From assembly GCA_043809745.1 (NCBI GenBank), contig JBDROU010000081.1, forward strand, positions 1 through 64,000: a stretch of DNA of 64,000 nucleotides, written 5' to 3'. Below are positions 38,353-61,740 of the stretch, in pieces (positions within the stretch are counted from its first letter, which is position 1; each line of letters starts with the position of its first letter). This DNA comes from JBDROU01 sp043809745 [NCBI: bacterium]. Lineage in GTDB: Bacteria > Elusimicrobiota > JBDRMW01. The notes under the pieces are model-generated. The model made no database searches and was not told the origin of the DNA. It was given only the letters and a program-made list of their open reading frames with translations. A program made the position numbers and the translations under genes.

Positions 38353-38517
38353 GAGATCTCTTAAAAAGTGATACTCGAAGCGAAAATTTAGATTTTTGTG
38401 CGAAATCGAATTTTGTGAGGCTAGCATATCATCGATGAGATATGTAAGTCGAACAAAATATCGATTGTAGCCAAAAAGCTAAATTTGCAGCCGAGAACCG
38501 GCTTTTTGAGCGGTCTC
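38353..38517. repeat. Palindromic intergenic element, full copy
   Basis: The 165-base element has outer arms GAGATCTCTTAAAAAG (from 38353) and CTTTTTGAGCGGTCTC (to 38517). The stem extends inward with matching blocks, giving an imperfect stem of about 37 bp. An inner hairpin is CATATC-ATCGATGA-GATATG, and a middle stem pairs GAATTTTGT with ACAAAAT. It lies between the big operon and rex. It is nearly the same length and plan as the copy at 47827. Confidence 0.75.
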
Positions 38518-38536
38518 GCCATATAAAGATTACAAA

Positions 38537-39151
38537 ATGACCAAGATTCCTTCTGCGGTTGTGGCCAGATTGTCGCAAATGTATAGAATATTGGACAATC
38601 TTGAAGGCAAGAGATTTATTTCATCAAATGAAATTTCATCTGTAAGCGGTTTTACTGCTGCTCAGATTCGTAGGGATCTAACTTATTTTGGACAGTTTGG
38701 AACAACCGGGAAGGGCTATAATATATCTTTATTAAAAGAGGAAATATTAAAAATACTTGGATTGGATCAAAATTGGCGTGTTGCGCTGATTGGTGTAGGA
38801 AATCTGGGCAGAGCCTTGCTAAAGTACAAAGGATTCAGGGATAAGGGATTTACAATCAGCGCTGCTTTTGAAAATGATCGTAGAAAGGTTGGAAAAACAA
38901 TAAATGGCACAATGATATTCAGCATAAACATGTTGAAATCTATAACTAAAAAAAATTATATAGAAATGGCTATTCTTACAGTTCCAGAAGAAGCTGCGCA
39001 AAGGGTAGCAAATCTTTTGAACGGAAGTGCGGTTAAAGCTGTGCTGAATTTTACTCCTTCTAAGGTTAATTGTGGTAAATCAATACTGGTGCACAATATA
39101 GATATGACGGTAGAAATGGAAAAGTTGTCTTTTTTTGCAAAGAAAAAATGA
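38537..39151 (+). CDS. rex: Redox-sensing transcriptional repressor Rex
   Basis: The 204-residue product has the winged helix of Rex (ISSNEISSVSGFTAAQIRRD, then LTYFGQFG-TTGKGYN) and the Rossmann NAD(H)-binding GVGNLGRALL (86-95). It closes with the domain-swap helix at the C-terminus. Rex represses respiratory and fermentative genes when NADH/NAD is low. No TTGTGA-type operator was found by eye between here and 39214. The next genes are the histone-like protein and a complex I membrane cluster, plausible redox-linked targets. Confidence 0.93.
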   Translation: MTKIPSAVVARLSQMYRILDNLEGKRFISSNEISSVSGFTAAQIRRDLTYFGQFGTTGKGYNISLLKEEILKILGLDQNWRVALIGVGNLGRALLKYKGFRDKGFTISAAFENDRRKVGKTINGTMIFSINMLKSITKKNYIEMAILTVPEEAAQRVANLLNGSAVKAVLNFTPSKVNCGKSILVHNIDMTVEMEKLSFFAKKK

Positions 39152-39214: not shown

Positions 39215-39394
39215 ATGGCAGAAACTCTGGTTGTAGTAAGCAAGATTAAAAAAATGGTTAAGGAGCAGGGCTTGAGAACAGGAGTCGATTATATTAATGC
39301 TTTGTCAGTTAAGGTTGATGATATAATTAAGGCTTCAGTGGAAAAAGTCAAACAGGAAGGCGGAAAGAAGACATTAGGCGCGGAAGATCTATAG
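39215..39394 (+). CDS. Bacterial histone-fold DNA-binding protein
   Basis: The 59-residue product (begins MAETLVVVSKIKKMVKEQGL) reads like a single histone fold. A short helix leads into the central helix GVDYINALSVKVDDIIKASV, then a third helix ends in GGKKTLGAEDL. The K-K-T and terminal E-D match the R-x-T ... D signature at the end of archaeal histones and bacterial singlet histones of the Bdellovibrio Bd0055 type. Start 39215 follows AGGTGGTG (39200-39207). The length is shorter than HU (about 90). It likely binds DNA as a dimer. A terminator hairpin follows. Confidence 0.75.
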   Translation: MAETLVVVSKIKKMVKEQGLRTGVDYINALSVKVDDIIKASVEKVKQEGGKKTLGAEDL

Positions 39395-39408: not shown

Positions 39409-39447
39409 AGCACACCTTTTGTAGAATATATCTGCAAAAGGTGTGCT
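39409..39447 (+). terminator. Hairpin after the histone-like gene
   Basis: AGCACACCTTTTG (39409-39421) and its exact complement CAAAAGGTGTGCT (39435-39447) form a 13-bp stem with a 13-base loop, followed by a weak T stretch. Probably terminates the histone-like gene before the nuo-like cluster. Confidence 0.65.
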
Positions 39448-39484: not shown

Positions 39485-39826
39485 ATGGACGCTATAATAA
39501 ATATTTTCATTTATTTACTGGTAGCTTCGTTTTTCTATTGTTTTTTGCTTATTATATCTTTTGCCAAGAATAAAAAGAAGTATAAGATTATAAATTTTAC
39601 TTTCACACAAAATCCGTTCAACACAGATAATACTGATATGAAATTACCGACAAAATTAATTTTTGCTGTTTTTGTATGTTTTACTATTGTAATTTCATGT
39701 TTCATGTTATATTTGTGGATTATTGTTTGCAAAGAGATAATTTTAATTCAATGGATCGGTATGGGGATTTTCAGCCTGTTGATATTTATTGCGTTTTTGT
39801 TTATATCCAAGGAAACAATATTTTAA
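39485..39826 (+). CDS. NuoA-like membrane subunit, highly divergent
   Basis: The 113-residue product has three membrane helices (about 4-26, 57-80, 89-107) with the spacing of NuoA/ND3, and a loop in the place of the conserved Tyr-Glu-Cys-Gly segment. The second helix (FVCFTIVISCFMLYLW) aligns with the NuoA helix FVIFDVE...FLYPW. The conserved Asp and Glu are replaced by Val and Ser. The ATG at 39485 gives the right length; an upstream TTG is possible. Its place before NuoH-like fits complex I gene order. Identification rests on topology and position, so it is moderate. Confidence 0.55.
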   Translation: MDAIINIFIYLLVASFFYCFLLIISFAKNKKKYKIINFTFTQNPFNTDNTDMKLPTKLIFAVFVCFTIVISCFMLYLWIIVCKEIILIQWIGMGIFSLLIFIAFLFISKETIF

Positions 39827-39839
39827 GCAAGAAACAGTT

Positions 39840-40913
39840 ATGGAACTTAATGATTTATTCCTATTATTCCACAATATATTTGCAAAAATATTTGAATCTC
39901 ATTTCTGGTCGCTTAAAGCGCTTGGTATTATGGAATCTGTTGTTAAAGCAGCAGTGCTTTTTGCATTTGTTTATCTTGGTTCTTTCTTTATTTATATTTG
40001 GGAGAAAGTAACATTAAAGGAAAGGGAAAACCATAATAAACATTGGATAAGTTTAAGTTTTATTTGTTTTTTTAAGGGAGTAATTGTTTTTACAGGGATG
40101 TTGTTTAGAGGTAAGTTACTGCCTAGATTTGTTGGTAGAATTACATATGCATGTTTTACCGTAGCTGCATTTGTGTGTTTATTTCTAATTAACGCAGCAA
40201 TTCCATTTGGGAAGGATTTAGTTGCGTACAATTCGCAATTGGGTGTTCTATATATCCTGCCATTGTTGTTTTTAGTTGGGTTATTAAAAAATTATTCAAT
40301 TTTATTGGAAGAACAGTACAATAAAAAAGATCAAAATATTTTTGGTGAATCTTTATTGTCCGGTCAGCTGACTTTGTTTTTATCTATAATACCGGTTGTT
40401 TTTCTAACTGACAGCATCAACATAGTATCTATCGTTTCTGCCCAGCAGGGTTTCATATTTAAGTATATACCGCAATGGATCATATTTTATCCGTTAATCG
40501 GGCAGTTATCATTTATAATATTCACTTTAAGCTGCCTGATGATATATTATCAATTATCGAATGGCGGAGCAAACAAGATTAGTAGAAATAATTTTATAAA
40601 TTCTATGAGATATGAATCATTTGCAAGCATCAATCACCCGGGATTTTTTCCATATCTTAACCAATACGTGTTTGTTTTTACAGTTTCAGGCTTAGCAGTA
40701 GCACTCTTTTTTGGCGGGGGTCAAGGTCCAGTATTTGGGAGCAGTATTTGGTTTGTGATAAAAATGTTTTGTGTTGCGTCTTTTTTAAGCTGGATAAATA
40801 TTAAACTTATAGATCTGCGGATTAAAAACTTATTCAAATATTATTGGAAGGGTATAATACCTTTGGCATTTATAAATTTTATACTTTGCTGTTTAGGACA
40901 TATAATTAAATAA
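39840..40913 (+). CDS. NuoH-like membrane subunit, divergent
   Basis: The 357-residue product has about eight helices. The late segment VALFFGGGQGP matches the conserved FLGGW-x-GP of NuoH/ND1. The N-terminal WEKVTLKERE replaces the AERKxLGRxQxRxGPN signature, and the Glu-rich loop PEAESELVAG of the quinone cavity is replaced (NSMRYESFASINH). So the quinone-proximal residues of complex I appear lost. ATG at 39840 follows the previous stop by 13 bases. It likely anchors the membrane arm without a normal quinone site. Confidence 0.65.
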   Translation: MELNDLFLLFHNIFAKIFESHFWSLKALGIMESVVKAAVLFAFVYLGSFFIYIWEKVTLKERENHNKHWISLSFICFFKGVIVFTGMLFRGKLLPRFVGRITYACFTVAAFVCLFLINAAIPFGKDLVAYNSQLGVLYILPLLFLVGLLKNYSILLEEQYNKKDQNIFGESLLSGQLTLFLSIIPVVFLTDSINIVSIVSAQQGFIFKYIPQWIIFYPLIGQLSFIIFTLSCLMIYYQLSNGGANKISRNNFINSMRYESFASINHPGFFPYLNQYVFVFTVSGLAVALFFGGGQGPVFGSSIWFVIKMFCVASFLSWINIKLIDLRIKNLFKYYWKGIIPLAFINFILCCLGHIIK

Positions 40914-40931
40914 GTATTTAGGGAAATTAAG

Positions 40932-41432
40932 ATGATTAATAGTGTTCTGGTTGTTGCGGTTATAGGAATAATAATATTAGCCGGTGCAGGCATGGTAGTT
41001 TCCTTTAGTATATATAAGCAGCTGATTTTTAGACTGATATTCATTTCTTTCCTTGTGCTTTTATATTCAGTATTCGAGGGTCACTATGTTTCTTCTTATT
41101 ACCTGCTTAGTGCCGCAGGAATGCTTACTTTGCTCTTTATTTGCTCCCAATATATGCTTCCGCAAGATAGGATTGTTAGGGTATTAAATGAACAAATATT
41201 GATTTCATCACTGCTGTCAGGATTGCTTATGCTGGTTATTATATATGTAAATCTAGCATTAAATAATTTTGCGATCGATCTTAAGTGGGTAAAACAGAAA
41301 AACATATTTCTTATCGCAAAGGATTTGCTGAACCAGCAAGGATTAAGTATATGTATAGTCGGTGCAATAGCATTCGCAGTTCTTATTGGTTCCGGATATA
41401 TTGTGCTGCGTTTAGAGGAAAAAAATGAATAA
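40932..41432 (+). CDS. NuoJ-like membrane subunit
   Basis: The 166-residue product has five helices. Segment YYLLSAAGMLTLLFICSQYML fits the conserved third helix of NuoJ/ND6 (normally with GAxxVLFLFVxML). Its stop overlaps the NuoK-like start by 8 bases (41425-41432), the common arrangement. Assigned by position, size and this helix. Distant from known NuoJ. Confidence 0.65.
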   Translation: MINSVLVVAVIGIIILAGAGMVVSFSIYKQLIFRLIFISFLVLLYSVFEGHYVSSYYLLSAAGMLTLLFICSQYMLPQDRIVRVLNEQILISSLLSGLLMLVIIYVNLALNNFAIDLKWVKQKNIFLIAKDLLNQQGLSICIVGAIAFAVLIGSGYIVLRLEEKNE

Positions 41433-41733
41433 TTTAGGGCTTCTTTTAATCCTTTCTGGAGTTTTGTTTTGTCTAGGCATATTTGGTGTTTTAATTCATC
41501 GAAATTTACTTAGAATACTTATTTGTATAGAGCTTTTATTCGTTTCAACAATAATAAATTTTGTTATATTCAATTCCCAAATTCATCATGAGCATTCTGC
41601 TGGTTTTATATTCGCATTGGTAATTTTGTTCTTATCAACGCTGATGACAGCCATGGGGATATTTTTGATATTTGCTTTGCATAAAAGTAATAATTCTTTG
41701 TTAGAAGATAAATTGAATGTATTTAAGGGTTAG
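41425..41733 (+). CDS. nuoK: NuoK-like membrane subunit
   Basis: The 102-residue, three-helix product has the NuoK/MrpC pattern: RILICIELLFVSTIINFVIF with Glu36 retained, then FALVILFLSTLMTAMGIFLIFALHK. The second conserved Glu (Glu72 in E. coli NuoK, in AAAEA) aligns to Met74 here, so half of the acidic pair for proton transfer is missing. The start is ATG 41425 within the upstream gene's end, and a 4-base gap separates it from the NuoL-like gene. Confidence 0.8.
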   Translation: MNNLGLLLILSGVLFCLGIFGVLIHRNLLRILICIELLFVSTIINFVIFNSQIHHEHSAGFIFALVILFLSTLMTAMGIFLIFALHKSNNSLLEDKLNVFKG

Positions 41734-41736
41734 TAA

Positions 41737-43677
41737 ATGTTAGCTAAGTTTATTTTTCTATCTCCATTCATATTCTTGTTTGTCTCGCTTATTATTTATT
41801 TATTCGGGAGTTATCTGCCAAGAAAGGGCGGTTTCTTAAATTTTATCACTCTAATATTTTGTATCACCCTGTCATTTGCAGCTCTGGCGCGAACAGTCAA
41901 CGGTTCATTTTCGCTGCCCAAGGAGATTAATTTTAATTTTATAACAGTTTATTTTTATAAACTCAATTTTAGTCTAAGAATTGACGGTATATCAATAATT
42001 ATTATGTTATTAATCGGTTTATGTGTGGCTTTGGTGCATGCCTATTCAGTTGGATTAATGGAAGGAAAGGATTGGGAAAAAGACTATAATATATGCTTTT
42101 CGTTAAGTTTATTCTCAATATTTCTGCTAAATCTCTCAAGCAATTATTTATTGATGGTTTTTTGTTTAGAGATTGCCGCGCTTTCAGGTTATGGGTCTGT
42201 ATTACTCACTTCAAATCAAAATGAGATTAAACAAATATACTATAAAAGCTGGATAGCTGTTAGAATTTCTGATTTCTGTTTTATTACAGGTGTCTTAATA
42301 TTATTTACTAAATGCGGTACCTTGAATATAGAACAGGTTTTACTGCATATGAATTTAAACTTCCTGCCCGAATACGAAGTCCTGACCATAGGCTTGTTGT
42401 TTCTTGCCGCTGTATTAGGCAGGGTGTCGGCTTTTCCATGGTATTCCTGGTTGTCAGATTTATTTGGGGACAGTAATGCCAGCATTGGGATTATAACAGT
42501 AATATGTGTAGCTGGCAGCGGAATAATCCTTTTATTGAAAAGCTTTCCAATGATAATGAATTCTTCATTACTTTTAGATTTTACAATTATTGCAGGTGTA
42601 TTCACTTTTATTATTGGAGCAATAGCAGCATGCTTAACAATGGATTTAAAAAAATTGATTGCGCACTCAATTATCTCACAATGCGGTTTTATGCTGTTTG
42701 TTTTTGGATTGGGATTATTTCAGTGGGTTGTTTTCGTTTTTTTGCATTACATTTTGATTTACAGCCTGTTTTTTATGCTTGTTAGTTCAATTATATTTAT
42801 GTTTGCTTCTCAAGACTTAAGAAGGATGGGTGGTATTGCTAAGAGAATGCCGATAGTCGCGATAAACTTCTTTATTTTAACACTTGCTATGAGTTGCTTT
42901 CCATTGTTTTCTACTTTCTGGGGCATGGGAGGAATAATGGAAGAAATTCTTTCAGCGAACAACAGCTTATATATGTCGTTTTTTGTTATATTTAATTTAC
43001 TTACATCAATTTATATGGGTAGAGCTTGCAGTTTGATATTTTTTGGACAACCTAGAGATATTCATCTATTTGAACGAACCATCGATCCGCCGTTATTTAT
43101 GGATATTCCGTTGATATTTAGCACATTGTTGATGGTTATCGGAGGGTGGATTCTTAGTTTGACCGATATATTAAAAAAGATAATGCCTTTCTCGATATAT
43201 TCTTTTACCGCTATTGACACTGTTATAGCGCATGATGGAAGTATAATGAAATGGGGTTTGGTTTTTATTTCGATATTTGGTCTATTTGCTGGGTGGATTT
43301 TAGCTAATATTACATTAAAACAACCGCATTTATTATTAAGTTCGCTTAAATATTCAGAGCCGCAATCGTATTTAAACAAAATCTATGAATATATATTATG
43401 CTTGTTTACAGGATTCCTAAATCGAAGCATTTCATTAATTGAAATGGGAATACAAAACTCACCATCAATTATTGTAAAAGAAATTTTGAGATTTAATAAT
43501 GATTTATTCTTAACCTTAGAAAATACAACTAAGAGTCTATCCGGGAAAATTTTTGATAATATAAAAACTCTTGCTTTTTTCATTCAAAAAATTCAAAGCG
43601 GCAGGATTTCTCATTATGTTTTACTTACTGTCATGATAATTTTAATTTTAGCGTGGGTCAATATATTAATTTACTAA
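41737..43677 (+). CDS. nuoL: NuoL-like antiporter subunit
   Basis: The 646-residue product has about 15 helices and a C-terminal lateral helix with a final membrane anchor, as in NuoL/ND5. The TM5 Glu is kept (VFCLEIAALSGY). At the TM7 Lys position (E. coli Lys229) there is Arg (GRVSAFPWYSWLSD), and the TM8 His is replaced (TVICVAGSG). The LAMSCFPLFSTFWGMGG segment matches family helix 11. The size and C-terminal arm mark it as NuoL rather than a Mrp subunit. It probably moves ions, but with altered key residues. Confidence 0.82.
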   Translation: MLAKFIFLSPFIFLFVSLIIYLFGSYLPRKGGFLNFITLIFCITLSFAALARTVNGSFSLPKEINFNFITVYFYKLNFSLRIDGISIIIMLLIGLCVALVHAYSVGLMEGKDWEKDYNICFSLSLFSIFLLNLSSNYLLMVFCLEIAALSGYGSVLLTSNQNEIKQIYYKSWIAVRISDFCFITGVLILFTKCGTLNIEQVLLHMNLNFLPEYEVLTIGLLFLAAVLGRVSAFPWYSWLSDLFGDSNASIGIITVICVAGSGIILLLKSFPMIMNSSLLLDFTIIAGVFTFIIGAIAACLTMDLKKLIAHSIISQCGFMLFVFGLGLFQWVVFVFLHYILIYSLFFMLVSSIIFMFASQDLRRMGGIAKRMPIVAINFFILTLAMSCFPLFSTFWGMGGIMEEILSANNSLYMSFFVIFNLLTSIYMGRACSLIFFGQPRDIHLFERTIDPPLFMDIPLIFSTLLMVIGGWILSLTDILKKIMPFSIYSFTAIDTVIAHDGSIMKWGLVFISIFGLFAGWILANITLKQPHLLLSSLKYSEPQSYLNKIYEYILCLFTGFLNRSISLIEMGIQNSPSIIVKEILRFNNDLFLTLENTTKSLSGKIFDNIKTLAFFIQKIQSGRISHYVLLTVMIILILAWVNILIY

Positions 43678-43689
43678 GGAGTTTGTAAA

Positions 43690-45153
43690 ATGAATATTTT
43701 AACTTTATTAATCTTAAGCCCTTTTTTGGGGTCACTCATTGTCTTAGTGCTGAATAAACATCATACCCGTTTAATAAAGCTGATATCCGGTATTTTTACT
43801 ATTATACCGCTGATTCTAGGTTCTATCCTTTTTTTACTTTTTGATCCATCAACAACATCTTTGCAATTTGTGGAAAACCATCTTTGGATTTCCCAGTTAG
43901 GCATAAGATATTACGTCGGTGTGGATGGGATATCTCTAATAATGATTATTCTGAGCAGTTTTATGGGGGTCCTTTCATATGTACTTTCTTTAAGCATTAG
44001 AGAGCGTGTTAAAGAGTATTTTTTACTATTTCTGGTGCAATACGGAGCCCTATTAGGTGTGTTTGCTGCAATTGATGTGCTGCTGTTTTTTGTTTTTCTT
44101 CAAATAAGCATGATCCCAATATTCCTGCTAATAACGATCTTTGGCATGGAAAATAAGATTTATGCTTCTAGGCATTTTGCTTTGTACAACTTAACTGCAA
44201 GTATACTTTTACTAATATCAACAATATGCATTTACGCAAATATAGGTAGCGGCGGTGTAGATTTGTTGAATTTATCTCAAGTGAGTTCTGGTTTTTCATC
44301 AGGTTTTAGAACTTTGCTTGTTATATTGCTATTTTTTAGTTTTGGGATAATCAGCGGTGTTTTTCCTTTTCATGGTTGGGTATCGATTGCTTCGCGTCAG
44401 GCGCCGCTGCAGGTTGCAGTAATCTTAACCGGTGTTTCTCTTAAAGTTGGTATTTATGGATTAATTCGTTTTGTAATGCCAATATTTTCTCAGGGAGTTT
44501 ATTTTAACAACAAGCTATTTTTGGTATTTGGGTTAGTTACTATATTGTATAGCGCAATATATTGTTTAAGCCAGAAGGATTTAAGATTGCTGGTGGGCTG
44601 TATATCTACGGTTTATAGCGGCTATCTTTTATTAGGTTTCGGCGCTTTTAATGCGGTAGGGCTGAATGGCATCGTGTTAACCATGGTTGCTCACGGATTG
44701 TTTATCTCAAGTCTATTTGTACTTGTGGATTGTTTGTTTATTAGAAGCGGAAAAATGATAATAACAGAGTTTGGCGGATTGAGTACCAAAATGCCGGTCT
44801 TTACTGCATTTTCAATACTTATAATTTTAGCGGCTATTGGGTTGCCGGGTTTTGGTACTTTTATTGGAATATTTTTGTCTTTTTTGGGCGCGTTTGATGA
44901 ATATCCCGTTATTACTTCGCTCGCTTTTATTGGAATAGCTGTTGTTACTGTTGCTTTTCTAAAGCTTTTACAGGATATGTTTTTCTCAGCATCTAAATTA
45001 CAATTAGATAATCTGACTGATCTGAATATTAAAGAAATACTAACACTGCTGCCGTTTGTCTTAATTCTTTTTGTTTTAGGAATATATCCGAAGGTTTTGC
45101 TTGACTTTATTAATATGACAGTTATAAATATTTGTCAAATCTTACAAAGGTAA
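43690..45153 (+). CDS. nuoM: NuoM-like antiporter subunit with lost channel residues
   Basis: The 487-residue product matches NuoM/ND4 throughout (14 helices; GVDGISLIMIILSSFMG; VFPFHGWVSIASRQAP; LKVGIYGLIRFVMPIF). The TM5 Glu essential in E. coli (Glu144) is Gln138 here (FVFLQISMIP), and the TM7 Lys (Lys234) aligns to Ile221. Lys252 (E. coli Lys265) is kept. These two changes would be expected to block the standard proton path. GGAG at 43679-43682 precedes the ATG. Confidence 0.85.
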   Translation: MNILTLLILSPFLGSLIVLVLNKHHTRLIKLISGIFTIIPLILGSILFLLFDPSTTSLQFVENHLWISQLGIRYYVGVDGISLIMIILSSFMGVLSYVLSLSIRERVKEYFLLFLVQYGALLGVFAAIDVLLFFVFLQISMIPIFLLITIFGMENKIYASRHFALYNLTASILLLISTICIYANIGSGGVDLLNLSQVSSGFSSGFRTLLVILLFFSFGIISGVFPFHGWVSIASRQAPLQVAVILTGVSLKVGIYGLIRFVMPIFSQGVYFNNKLFLVFGLVTILYSAIYCLSQKDLRLLVGCISTVYSGYLLLGFGAFNAVGLNGIVLTMVAHGLFISSLFVLVDCLFIRSGKMIITEFGGLSTKMPVFTAFSILIILAAIGLPGFGTFIGIFLSFLGAFDEYPVITSLAFIGIAVVTVAFLKLLQDMFFSASKLQLDNLTDLNIKEILTLLPFVLILFVLGIYPKVLLDFINMTVINICQILQR

Positions 45154-45159
45154 TAGAAA

Positions 45160-46539
45160 ATGATATATTATCTATTCTCACCAGAACTATGCTTATTAGG
45201 AACGTCTGCTGTTATATTGCTGATAAGAGCTTTTTTCAAAGATATCAATAAAAATTATTACGCTTTGATCTCAATTGTTGGACTTTTTTTAGGTTTACAT
45301 TTGTTAGTAAGAAGCGCTGACAGCGGTTTTGCTGCTTCCGAGTTATTAACAGGCATTTATATTGTTTCATTTTCCAAGATCCTCTTTTTCGCAGTTGTTT
45401 TTTTTGTAATACTGTTATGGGTAGGGTATAAGGAGGAGCAGCCCGGGGATAATTCCTTCTTTTTTGTCTGGCTCCTGCTCAATCTTATGAGTTCTTGCGC
45501 TATTATTTCTTCGGGTAATTTGCTGCTGCTGTATTGCGCTTTTGAACTTTTTACTCTCTCCTCAGTTTTTTTGATTTTAACTCATCAAAACATTAAACAT
45601 GCTTTAGAAGCAGGAATTAAATTTCTTATTTTGAGTTTGGTGGGGTCAGCTTTTATATTACTTTCATTATCTTTTGTATACGGTATTGCTGGAACGATAG
45701 ACATAATAGAGATAAGCCATCATTTAAAAGAGAGCAGCTCCGCGCATGTACTTCTGGTTCTAATTCTTTTATCGGGGATTGCGCTTAAATTAGGAGTTGT
45801 GCCGTTTCATTATTGGTTCCCTGATGTTGTCAAGGTTGCTCCAATACCAATAGCCGCATATTTTTCTCTTATTCCTGTCAGCATATTCGTTATTTTAGTA
45901 TTTAATACTTTTGGGATCGCGTTCAGCGATATGCTCCAGAAACTTTCGTTTTTTTATGCATTGTTAGCAGTTTTAAGTCTTGTTGTAGGGAATCTGTTTG
46001 CTTTGAAGCAGAGTGATATCAAGAGGTTAATCGCTTATTCAGCCATATTACAATCAGGATTTGTTCTCTTAGGATTGGCTGGAGGTGTTGTTTTTGATTG
46101 GAAAGTAATTATCTATTGCCTAGCTGTTTATTTGTTAATGCATATGGGATTATTCAGCCTTTTAGCTGCTATTCATAAATCTTCATTTTCTTTTAAGGTA
46201 TCTTCTTTAAATGGTTTAGCAAAAAGCTCTTTATTTCTTGCTTTACTTGCATTGGCTTATCTATGTGTTTTTATGGGTATTCCTTTATCAGGAAGTTTTT
46301 TGAGTAGAGTATATTTGCTGGTATCGGCAATTAAAGCCCAGTGGTTTATACTGGCCGGCATAGTATTTTTTAGCTGGATATTTTCGCTTATAATATATCT
46401 AAAATTAATCAAAAGTATTTTTTCAGAACCAATTGAAGGTGAAGTTGTTTATAAAATAAATTATTTGTTGTGCGCGGTTTCTTTAATTTGTCTGATCTGT
46501 CTTGTAGTGCTTGGAGTTTTTCCGGATTTAGTATTTTAG
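45160..46539 (+). CDS. nuoN: NuoN-like antiporter subunit
   Basis: The 459-residue product fits NuoN/ND2 (FELFTLSSVFLIL with TM5 Glu kept; ALKLGVVPFHYWFPDV with TM7 Lys kept; LKQSDIKRLIAYSAI). The TM8 Lys (Lys247 in E. coli) aligns to Val in YFSLIPVSIF. It is the last gene of the membrane-arm cluster, 7 bases after the NuoM-like stop. No nuoB, C, D, E, F, G or I is adjacent; the following gene is a flavodoxin with its own ribosome-binding site. Confidence 0.82.
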   Translation: MIYYLFSPELCLLGTSAVILLIRAFFKDINKNYYALISIVGLFLGLHLLVRSADSGFAASELLTGIYIVSFSKILFFAVVFFVILLWVGYKEEQPGDNSFFFVWLLLNLMSSCAIISSGNLLLLYCAFELFTLSSVFLILTHQNIKHALEAGIKFLILSLVGSAFILLSLSFVYGIAGTIDIIEISHHLKESSSAHVLLVLILLSGIALKLGVVPFHYWFPDVVKVAPIPIAAYFSLIPVSIFVILVFNTFGIAFSDMLQKLSFFYALLAVLSLVVGNLFALKQSDIKRLIAYSAILQSGFVLLGLAGGVVFDWKVIIYCLAVYLLMHMGLFSLLAAIHKSSFSFKVSSLNGLAKSSLFLALLALAYLCVFMGIPLSGSFLSRVYLLVSAIKAQWFILAGIVFFSWIFSLIIYLKLIKSIFSEPIEGEVVYKINYLLCAVSLICLICLVVLGVFPDLVF

Positions 46540-46591: not shown

Positions 46592-47080
46592 ATGAAAACA
46601 TTGGTTATTTTTTATTCATTTGACGGCAATACAAAACTTATCGCGGAAAGTATTGCTGAAGAGATTAATGCTGAACTGGCAGAACTGAAACAAAAAGATG
46701 AACCGAAATCAAAGGGTTTTATGAAATATTTTTGGGGAGGCAGGCAGGCTCTGATGAGGAAAAAGCCGGAGCTGCTTCCATTGGATAAAAAAACGGAGGA
46801 ATATGATGTGATATTCATTGGCACCCCTGTATGGGCATGGACTTATGCTCCGCCTTTAAATACATTTTTTTCAATATCTTCTTTTTCCGGCAAAAAAATT
46901 GCCTTATTCTGTTGTCATGGCGGCGGGAAGGGAAAAATTTTCGACAAGATGAAAGAAGCTCTTCCTGATAATCAGTTTTTAGGTGAAATTGATTTCTTGG
47001 AACCAATAAAAAACAATAAAGAGGATAGTATACAGAAAGCAAAAAAATGGGCTAAGGATATAAAGAATTCTTTGCAATGA
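46592..47080 (+). CDS. Flavodoxin-family protein
   Basis: The 162-residue product has the FMN phosphate loop VIFYSFDGNTKLIAESI and a GTPVWAWTYAPPLNTFF flavin-stacking segment, as in flavodoxin-like proteins of the NAD(P)H-quinone oxidoreductase/flavodoxin_4 group. GAGGAGG lies six to ten bases before the ATG. It could carry electrons to or from an unseen partner. It is 52 bases after the NuoN-like gene, so a functional link with that cluster is possible but not shown. The stop overlaps the next gene (ATGA). Confidence 0.85.
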   Translation: MKTLVIFYSFDGNTKLIAESIAEEINAELAELKQKDEPKSKGFMKYFWGGRQALMRKKPELLPLDKKTEEYDVIFIGTPVWAWTYAPPLNTFFSISSFSGKKIALFCCHGGGKGKIFDKMKEALPDNQFLGEIDFLEPIKNNKEDSIQKAKKWAKDIKNSLQ

Positions 47081-47826: not shown

Positions 47827-47989
47827 GAGATCTCTCAAAAAGGGGTAACCGTAACGAAATTTTGAGTTTTGAGCCGAGACGCGACGCACGAGGCGAGCAT
47901 ATCTTTGACGAGATACGTAAGCCGAGTGCAACAAAGTCGTAGGCCAAAGATCAAAATTGCAGTCGGTAGCCGCCTTTTTGAGCGATCTC
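47827..47989. repeat. Palindromic intergenic element, full copy upstream of rpsB
   Basis: This 163-base element has arms GAGATCTCTCAAAAAGG and CCTTTTTGAGCGATCTC, an inner GAGGCGAGCATATC segment mirrored by GAGATACGTAAGCCG, and a core near GCAGTCGGTAGCCGCC. Plan and length match the copy at 38353. It sits 25 bases before rpsB, within a possible long leader, so it could fold in the mRNA. Confidence 0.75.
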
Positions 47990-48014
47990 GAATAACCCAA
48001 AAGGAGGCGTACGC

Positions 48015-50780: not shown

Positions 50781-50833
50781 AAAGTGCTGTTCGGATAATT
50801 CGCAGCCGAGAACAGATTTTTTGAACGGTTTCG
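50781..50833 (+). terminator. Hairpin/short palindromic element after frr
   Basis: CTGTTCGG (50787-50794) pairs with CCGAGAACAG (50806-50815) with a two-base bulge, followed by TTTTTT (50817-50822). The flanking bases GCAGCCGAGAAC and TTTTTTGAACGG match the right arm of the palindromic element family. So a decayed copy of that element may serve as a terminator or attenuator between frr and uppS. Confidence 0.5.
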
Positions 50834-50869
50834 TAAATGTAAGAAAACAACTCTAGAAAATATAAAATT

Positions 50870-60492: not shown

Positions 60493-61740
60493 TTATAAAT
60501 AGATTAGAGTTATGATAATAAATATAGGTATTAGTATAACTGCAGCATAAAACATATACCCGAAGAATGAAGGCATTTTAATCTTATTTTCTTCGACGAT
60601 TGCTTTTACCATAAAGTTCGGCCCGTTTCCAATGTAGGAATTAGCTCCCATAAAAACAGCCCCCAGGCTTATTGCTTTCAGAAAATCCGTTGGAATCCCG
60701 AGCATCTCGCCGTTTAATCCTAAACCCTGTGATAATGAGAAGAAGGTTAAATATGTAGGTGTGTTGTCCAAGAATGAAGACAGGCTTCCTGTAAGCCAAA
60801 AAAACTGCCAGGGTTGATTAATACCGAACTGGGCTCCCCTGGCGTTTAATATAAGGAGTGTGGGAATCATAGTTATAAAAATACCTAAAAATAGTACAGC
60901 TACTTCAATTATAGGATTAAATGTAAATACATTTTCTTTTCTGTATTCCTTTTTAGTTGTAATTAGCGACATAATAGACATCGCAACCAGAACAATTTCT
61001 CTATACGGTGAATGTAATAATACACCGCAAATAACGCCGCCTATCCATAGAAAATTAATCTTTCCTTTTAGGCTTAATGGTTCAATTTGTTCTAGATCAT
61101 GGCGTAAATCTATTGGTGCTTCCCTTTTATAATAATGTCTGTCCATTAAATAAAAGATTATGAGTATTATTGTAAGCGTAGTGAGCCATTCCGGAAAGAG
61201 TTTCAATGTCCAAAAAAATGGTACACCTTTTAAGAAACCCATAAACAGCGGCGGATCTCCCAAAGGAGTTAAACAGCCTCCTATATTAGATACGAGAAAT
61301 ATAAAGAAAATAGGTATATGGTGTATATGTTTGCGTTCCTGGTTTGTCTTAATTAATGGGCGTATAAGAAGCATGCTTGCCCCTGTTGTCCCGATAAAAT
61401 TTGCGAGTATGGATCCAATTAACAGAAATGACGTATTTACCATGGGAGTTGCTTTCAGGTCTCCCCTTAGAACGATGCCGCCGGATACAATAAATAGGGC
61501 TCCGAGCAGCACTATAAAGGAGATATATTCCTGCATCGTATGAGTTAGATCTTGACGCCCCTTTAATACAAAAAAGATGAATACCGGTGCTGCCCAGAGA
61601 AAGCTTACCCAGGATTTATTTGCGTTGCTCTCCCACCAGTGGGGCTTCCAAAGAGGAAGTAATGCTATTGTGAGCAATATTCCAACAAATGGTATAACGC
61701 TCCATAATGGAAGTGTGAGCCCTAAATTTTCCGCATGCAT
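60493..61740 (-). CDS. nhaD: NhaD-type sodium/proton antiporter
   Basis: The 415-residue membrane protein starts MHAENLGLTLPLWSVIPF, the typical NhaD opening. It has ten or more helices with conserved SNIGGCLTPLGDPPLFMG and SSFLDNTPTYLTFF segments that carry the transport residues. It exports Na+ for H+. It is read away from the lipid kinase, with a 171-base AT-rich divergent spacer. A sodium economy may bear on the nuo-like cluster (inference). Confidence 0.92.
   Translation of the reverse strand: MHAENLGLTLPLWSVIPFVGILLTIALLPLWKPHWWESNANKSWVSFLWAAPVFIFFVLKGRQDLTHTMQEYISFIVLLGALFIVSGGIVLRGDLKATPMVNTSFLLIGSILANFIGTTGASMLLIRPLIKTNQERKHIHHIPIFFIFLVSNIGGCLTPLGDPPLFMGFLKGVPFFWTLKLFPEWLTTLTIILIIFYLMDRHYYKREAPIDLRHDLEQIEPLSLKGKINFLWIGGVICGVLLHSPYREIVLVAMSIMSLITTKKEYRKENVFTFNPIIEVAVLFLGIFITMIPTLLILNARGAQFGINQPWQFFWLTGSLSSFLDNTPTYLTFFSLSQGLGLNGEMLGIPTDFLKAISLGAVFMGANSYIGNGPNFMVKAIVEENKIKMPSFFGYMFYAAVILIPIFIIITLIYL

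What the first reader, a model, noticed from the sequence alone, without database searches (positions are those of the whole stretch)
39485..46539. Complex I membrane arm without a redox arm, with key proton-path residues replaced
The seven genes align in order and size with nuoA, H, J, K, L, M and N, and no nuoB, C, D, E, F, G or I is adjacent. Seen in the sequence: NuoA-like Asp/Glu pair lost, NuoH-like Glu loop and GPN signature lost, NuoK-like second Glu to Met74, NuoM-like Glu144 to Gln138 and Lys234 to Ile221, NuoL-like TM7 Lys to Arg, NuoN-like TM8 Lys to Val. Known: these positions carry proton transfer in complex I. Inference: a complex-I-derived membrane machine that has lost quinone coupling, perhaps an ion-gradient sensor, Na+ device or a unit using another electron source such as the nearby flavodoxin.
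Basis: partly seen in the sequence, partly recalled or inferred. Interest (0 to 1): 0.85.

Follow-up and report, generated by a model that had tools for sequence, protein, structure and literature searches.

The report
Complex I membrane arm, redox-less
A bacterium from an unidentified group carries what look like all seven membrane parts of the respiratory enzyme complex I side by side, with none of the electron-carrying parts nearby and with most of the key proton-path and docking residues changed, which suggests the membrane half has been kept for some other, probably ion-moving, job.

Summary
Seven open genes in the order A-H-J-K-L-M-N lie at 39485-46539. H, K, L, M and N are clear complex I homologues; A and J are weak and rest on position plus marginal profile matches. 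No NuoB, C/D, E, F, G or I homologue was found among 209 window ORFs. Of 25 key positions that are (nearly) invariant in the references, the window keeps 8, has Arg for Lys at 2 and loses 15. Kept islands: NuoN Glu/Lys pair, NuoL Glu/Asp/Arg cluster, NuoM TM8 Lys, NuoK E36. Against a charge-specific story, conserved charged columns are lost no more often than other conserved columns (p = 0.42). A working quinone-coupled arm is therefore unlikely. I favour a redox-independent ion-translocating complex, as inference. The genome is not held, so a redox arm elsewhere cannot be excluded; the taxon is unknown; no close relative was found in what could be searched, so recurrence is untested. New variant of a known kind.

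The parts
39485..39826 (+). NuoA-like, 113 aa, 3 predicted TM helices; loop Glu (E51) and the D79/E81 pair lost
   Evidence: PF00507 E 0.26, under cut-off; top window ORF for the NuoA profile; hhalign to NuoA over 105 columns, E 1.1e-4, probability 28%; residues; TM count
39840..40913 (+). NuoH-like, 357 aa from the ATG at 39840 (my tables number one higher, as they start at the GTT codon before it); GPN and PFDxPEAE segments and E157 lost, C-terminal FFGGxQGP and K274 kept
   Evidence: PF00346 2.6e-19, 70.1 bits; E. coli NuoH in PDB 1.3e-13; alignments; low-confidence model matches complex I chains
40932..41432 (+). NuoJ-like mainly by position and size, 5 predicted TM helices; Y59 replaced by Ala
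   Evidence: no Pfam or NCBIfam match; not found by the NuoJ profile; weak full-length hhalign match E 0.0012, probability 8%; AlphaFold model too poor to use
41425..41733 (+). NuoK-like; E36 kept, E72 replaced by Met74
   Evidence: PF00420 2.6e-15; hhalign 7.5e-16
41737..43677 (+). NuoL-like; E144 and D178 kept, K229>R, H254>T, K399>M
   Evidence: PF00361 4.8e-30; TIGR01974 198.7 bits, below its cut-off of 407.5
43690..45153 (+). NuoM-like; K265 kept, E144>Q138, K234>I221, E407>I394
   Evidence: PF00361 2.3e-39; TIGR01972 377.4 bits, above its cut-off of 263.8; up to 39% identity to other NuoM
45160..46539 (+). NuoN-like; E133 and K217 kept, K247>V240, K395>R383
   Evidence: PF00361 2.2e-47; TIGR01770 231.7 bits, below its cut-off of 332.6
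46592..47080 (+). Flavodoxin_4 protein, 52 bases after N; possibly co-transcribed, not shown to belong
   Evidence: PF12682 7.5e-15; no terminator-like site called between N and it
38537..39151 (+). Rex redox-sensing repressor upstream; a regulatory link is not supported
   Evidence: NF003995 239 bits; Rex-type operator pattern (recalled) at chance level, 40 sites against 38.2 expected

Best explanation
[quoted passage not shown] Shown: the gene set, its homology (strong for five subunits, weak for A and J), the absence of redox subunits from the window, and the loss of docking segments and of most key proton-path residues. Inferred: the proteins still assemble as an arm and move ions without electron transfer, most likely as a gradient-driven exchanger or ion path through the islands that remain (NuoN Glu129/Lys210 with Arg383; NuoL Glu145/Arg176/Asp179/Arg229), with NuoM, which has lost both partners of its ion pair, mainly a structural link.
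For: No NuoB/C/D/E/F/G/I match in 209 ORFs. NuoH segments that face the redox arm (role recalled) are kept, with small variations, in E. coli, L006, an archaeal NuoH (L011) and a NuoH from a hydrogenase-4-like gene order (L010, my reading), but not here. E157 of H, D79 of A and E72 of K, parts of the E-channel path in PMC13324432 (passages), are gone while 20 of 20, 23 of 23 and 35 of 35 references keep them. NuoM loses both E144 and K234 (28 of 28 and 27 of 28 references keep them) while L and N keep Glu with Arg or Lys. L, M and N fit complex I models better than the best named antiporter models (198.7 v 88.9, 377.4 v 141.9, 231.7 v 124.7 bits). Seven frames are open and predicted TM counts are near those of E. 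coli (E. coli/window: A 3/3, H 8/9, J 5/5, K 3/3, L 14/17, M 13/14, N 14/14).
Against: The genome is not held, so a redox arm elsewhere is not excluded. Conserved charged columns are not lost preferentially (22 of 49 kept against 93 of 178 other conserved columns, p = 0.42), so the pattern also fits broad relaxed divergence. PMC7419157 (passages) calls the Lys of TMH7 and TMH12 essential in Mrp; of the matching sites here only N TM7 is Lys, L TM7 and N TM12 are Arg, L TM12, M TM7 and M TM12 (Glu in canonical NuoM) carry no charge, which weakens an exchanger reading. Nothing shows assembly or transport. One sequence only, no dN/dS possible.
Confidence: 0.45

Rival explanations
1. Split complex: an unusual redox arm (hydrogenase-, ferredoxin- or flavodoxin-linked) is encoded elsewhere in the genome and docks onto this altered NuoH/NuoA.
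For: Complex I genes can sit in two operons, e.g. nuoGFE apart from the rest in Desulfurobacterium (PMC12724263, passages). The genome is not held. A flavodoxin lies next door.
Against: NuoH and NuoA segments facing the redox arm are eroded, though a NuoH from a hydrogenase-4-like gene order keeps them. E157 of H, D79 of A and E72 of K are gone.
Confidence: 0.25
2. Decaying remnant: the redox arm was lost and the membrane arm is drifting, with the frames still open.
For: Conserved charged and other columns are lost at similar rates. Of the six subunits compared (A was not), H and L have diverged most: window to E. coli 27.5% against 43.8-46.2% between canonical pairs for H, 22.3% against 42.9-43.6% for L.
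Against: Seven of seven frames open over about 2,300 codons; M still up to 39% identical to other NuoM over nearly its whole length; partners of the L, M and N ion pairs are kept or lost together.
Confidence: 0.15
3. Gradient-using device without net exchange: the arm senses the proton or sodium gradient, or uses it to drive a conformational change in an unknown partner, in the manner of ExbBD or MotAB.
For: Redox-linked and transport residues are both reduced; NuoH lost its partner segments but keeps conserved sites in its C-terminal half. Rex lies upstream.
Against: No partner protein identified; Rex-type operator pattern at chance level.
Confidence: 0.12

Closest known systems
Respiratory complex I (NDH-1), membrane arm NuoA,H,J,K,L,M,N
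   Same: Same relative gene order, similar sizes and TM counts; five subunits with clear family matches
   Different: No redox arm found in the window; NuoH/NuoA docking segments, E-channel carboxylates and most of the key proton-path residues changed
Mrp-type Na+/H+ antiporter (MrpA-G)
   Same: A multi-subunit membrane complex without a redox arm, built on homologous antiporter-like subunits
   Different: Has a NuoH-like and probably a NuoA-like subunit, which Mrp lacks (recalled); L, M, N and K score much higher with complex I models; no MrpE/F/G-type match among the ten proteins; TMH7/TMH12 Lys mostly missing
Group 4 hydrogenase / Mbh / formate hydrogenlyase membrane modules
   Same: NuoH-like plus antiporter-like subunits
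   Different: NuoB- and NuoC/D-type profiles, homologous to hydrogenase subunits (recalled), find nothing in the window; NuoH of L010 keeps segments lost here

Membership tests
Complex I (NDH-1) | Membrane subunits homologous to NuoH, K, L, M, N | tested here: met
   L and N are below the curated cut-offs of their NCBIfam models, M is above
Complex I (NDH-1) | Subunits homologous to NuoA and NuoJ | tested here: inconclusive
   Marginal profile matches only; NuoJ model too poor
Complex I (NDH-1) | Redox arm NuoB, C, D, I (with or without E, F, G) | tested here: inconclusive
   Not met in the window: no match in 209 ORFs; the rest of the genome is not held
Complex I (NDH-1) | Quinone-side segments of NuoH and loop of NuoA | tested here: not met
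Complex I (NDH-1) | E-channel and antiporter Glu/Lys relay | tested here: not met
   8 of 25 positions kept, 2 Lys to Arg, 15 lost
Complex I (NDH-1) | Electron transfer to quinone coupled to ion pumping | not testable with these tools
   Biochemistry needed
Mrp antiporter | MrpA-G gene set, no NuoH | tested here: not met
   NuoH-like present; L, M, N and K closer to complex I models; no MrpE/F/G-type match
Mrp antiporter | Lys on TMH7 and TMH12 of MrpA and MrpD | tested here: not met
   Only N TM7 is Lys; Arg in L TM7 and N TM12; essential role from PMC7419157 passages
Group 4 [NiFe] hydrogenase complex | Hydrogenase large and small subunits | tested here: inconclusive
   Related NuoC/D and NuoB profiles find nothing in the window; no hydrogenase-specific profile was run on all ORFs; genome not held

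The most novel reading that the evidence does not exclude
A selected machine in which the whole complex I membrane arm works without any redox arm: a complex I-derived, redox-independent ion-translocating or gradient-using complex. I saw no such thing in the listings of paper searches; of the 11 papers listed I looked at passages of 3.
Probability: 0.35. Interest if true: 0.88.

Novelty: new variant of a known kind. Interest (0 to 1): 0.7.

Why it matters
How quinone chemistry drives protons through the long membrane arm of complex I is still debated (PMC13324432 and PMC9271201, passages). A natural arm without the driver, in which some ion pairs are kept and others lost together, could show which residues serve transport by themselves and which serve only coupling. 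It also warns about annotation: a survey of Omnitrophota genomes cites PF00346, the NuoH family, as its mark of complex I (PMC10066038, passages), and this NuoH-like protein passes that model at 70.1 bits against a cut-off of 27, so a cluster like this could be counted as respiration.

Tried and rejected
Recurrence. The NuoH-like protein found no relative in genome contigs, in viral contigs or in 56 relatives of G004 (a blank without positive control). The NuoM-like query found 20 loci in genome contigs, best 37% (L001, which keeps the NuoM key residues); viral-contig scans with M, L and N found none. Whole-genome scans with M: best 34% in 387 genomes of the phylum of G003 (94 matched at E <= 1e-40), 33% in 7 single genomes, 39% in 132 of the phylum of G002 (23 matched at E <= 1e-95), 37% in 198 of G500 (40 at E <= 1e-85), 34% in 193 of G001 (1 at E <= 1e-85). 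The phylum sets are samples, and the strict E-values hide weaker matches. Plasmids with NuoH: 36 records, none over 26% in the 20 rows shown.

Charge-selective loss: rejected as a general statement (p = 0.42).

Rex control of the cluster: operator-like sites at the chance level.

Structure. The NuoJ model is too poor (pLDDT 50.9, pTM 0.29) and was not searched. The NuoH model has low confidence (pLDDT 51.9, pTM 0.57); all 50 rows shown by Foldseek, of 398 matches, are chains of complex I, NDH-1 or respirasome entries, but five canonical NuoH rows were in its alignment, so this is not independent.

Taxon: not established. Gene content made me think of Omnitrophota, but that is recall; a paper search for bacterial histones with Omnitrophota found none.

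Rows dropped: one search looked at 49 E. coli positions picked from memory (one, NuoA 46, was wrong: E. coli has Lys there); by my count the window keeps 15 of 49. The summary uses the 25 positions. Dropped positions that the window keeps include NuoM H241 and H348, NuoN K158, H224, K295 and E154, and NuoH K303.

Full report
What is there. The window (32-41% G+C in 4-kb blocks) has seven same-strand open frames at 39485-46539. Pfam and NCBIfam identify H, K, L, M and N as complex I-type subunits. A and J have no match over a curated cut-off: A has PF00507 at E 0.26, J nothing. Profiles built from session loci rank A first among window ORFs for NuoA (E 0.0013, with a bias larger than the score) and miss J. 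Single-sequence hhalign gives A to NuoA 1.1e-4 and J to NuoJ 0.0012, both full length and better than to the three other families tried, but with probabilities of only 28% and 8%. I accept A and J as likely, with position and size doing much of the work.

Complex I rather than Mrp. L, M and N score 198.7, 377.4 and 231.7 bits with their NDH-1 models, and 88.9, 141.9 and 124.7 with the best models named as antiporter subunits (for L a DUF4040-family model gives 91.1). K scores 62.4 with NuoK and 17.5 with an antiporter subunit C model. A NuoH-like subunit is present.

No redox arm in the window. Profiles of NuoB, C(D), E, F, G and I found nothing at E <= 10 among 209 ORFs of 60 aa or more, and no CxxCxxCxxxC motif occurs in any of them. 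Pfam scans show Rex, a flavodoxin and a PEMT/ICMT-type methyltransferase next to the cluster, a MoxR/DUF58/vWA cluster and TPR proteins upstream, and a ribosome recycling factor, uppS, cdsA, dxr, M50 peptidase, ispG and proS block downstream; rpsB, tsf and pyrH in that block are named from sequence by recall. Not every ORF was put through Pfam.

Residues. On alignments with E. coli and session loci (11 to 35 references per subunit) the window has: A E51>T, D79>T, E81>S; H E157>Q, D213>N, E216>S, E228>S, K274 kept, E36 kept in this alignment but W; J Y59>A; K E36 kept, E72>M; L E144 and D178 kept, K229>R, H254>T, K399>M; M E144>Q, K234>I, K265 kept, E407>I; N E133 and K217 kept, K247>V, K395>R. 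All references keep these residues except one at M K234 (27 of 28 keep it), one at N E133 (22 of 23), one at H D213 (19 of 20, the other Glu) and three gaps at H E36 (17 of 20). The references come mostly from a few phyla and are not independent; positions in A, J and the NuoH loops depend on weak alignments. Eight of 25 are kept, two are Lys to Arg, 15 are lost. In PMC13324432 (passages) the path runs E157 of H, D79 of A, E36/E72 of K, then K217-E133 of N, K234-E144 of M and on to L; here it is broken in H, A and K and again in M.

NuoH segments. E. coli, L006, the archaeal L011 and L010 (a hydrogenase-4-like gene order by my reading) keep [E/D]R...QxRxGP, YE and P-acid...ExExE...EYSG, with small variations; the window has none of the three intact, while C-terminal FFGGxQGP, K274 and a WK near the end are kept.

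A result against a simple story. Over columns conserved in at least 95% of references in H, K, L, M and N (22, 35, 12, 11 and 10 references), charged ones are kept in 22 of 49 and others in 93 of 178 (Fisher p = 0.42). The losses are not specific to charges: the proteins have diverged broadly and the key sites went with the rest. For H alone it is 2 of 13 against 11 of 26 (p = 0.15).

Reading frames. No internal stop in seven genes, against 245 and 128 stops in the other two frames. This argues against an old pseudogene cluster but does not prove selection.

Relatives. Details in Tried and rejected: no NuoM nearer than 39% was seen. FastTree puts window M next to L100 and loci of the G002 phylum (support 0.96) on a branch of 1.35, third longest after two L009 copies. 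A close relative may exist in phyla that I could not reach.

Literature. I ran paper searches and read passages, not whole papers, of ten papers. None of these passages describes a stand-alone NuoAHJKLMN arm. Only open-licence papers are held.

Mechanism. What is shown ends at sequence. The step from 'docking and proton path lost, some ion pairs kept' to 'redox-independent ion movement' is inference, and the loss of most TMH7/TMH12 lysines speaks against an ordinary Mrp-like exchanger.

Noticed in passing
39215-39394 +: A 59-aa single-histone-fold protein gene between Rex and the NuoA-like gene; phmmer 3.6e-7 to 8fvx and 4e-7 to 8cmp (CBFD_NFYB_HMF domain proteins), no Pfam hit at E 0.1.
   Followed up: partly
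39409-39447 +: An inverted repeat between the histone gene and the NuoA-like gene, seen by eye; not in the terminator scan list.
   Followed up: no
38353-38535, 47827-48007, 50797-50850: Diverged intergenic repeats before Rex, rpsB and uppS; the middle copy has a 45-nt inverted repeat at its ends, 71% complementary (D1, D3, I1).
   Followed up: no
60 genomes of the phylum of G002 (that of L001): 53 of 60 sampled genomes carry two NuoA (PF00507) matches and 7 carry one, which hints at two complex I sets in many.
   Followed up: no
60493-61740 -: CitMHS_2 family transporter (PF16980, 1.5e-159) in the same window.
   Followed up: no
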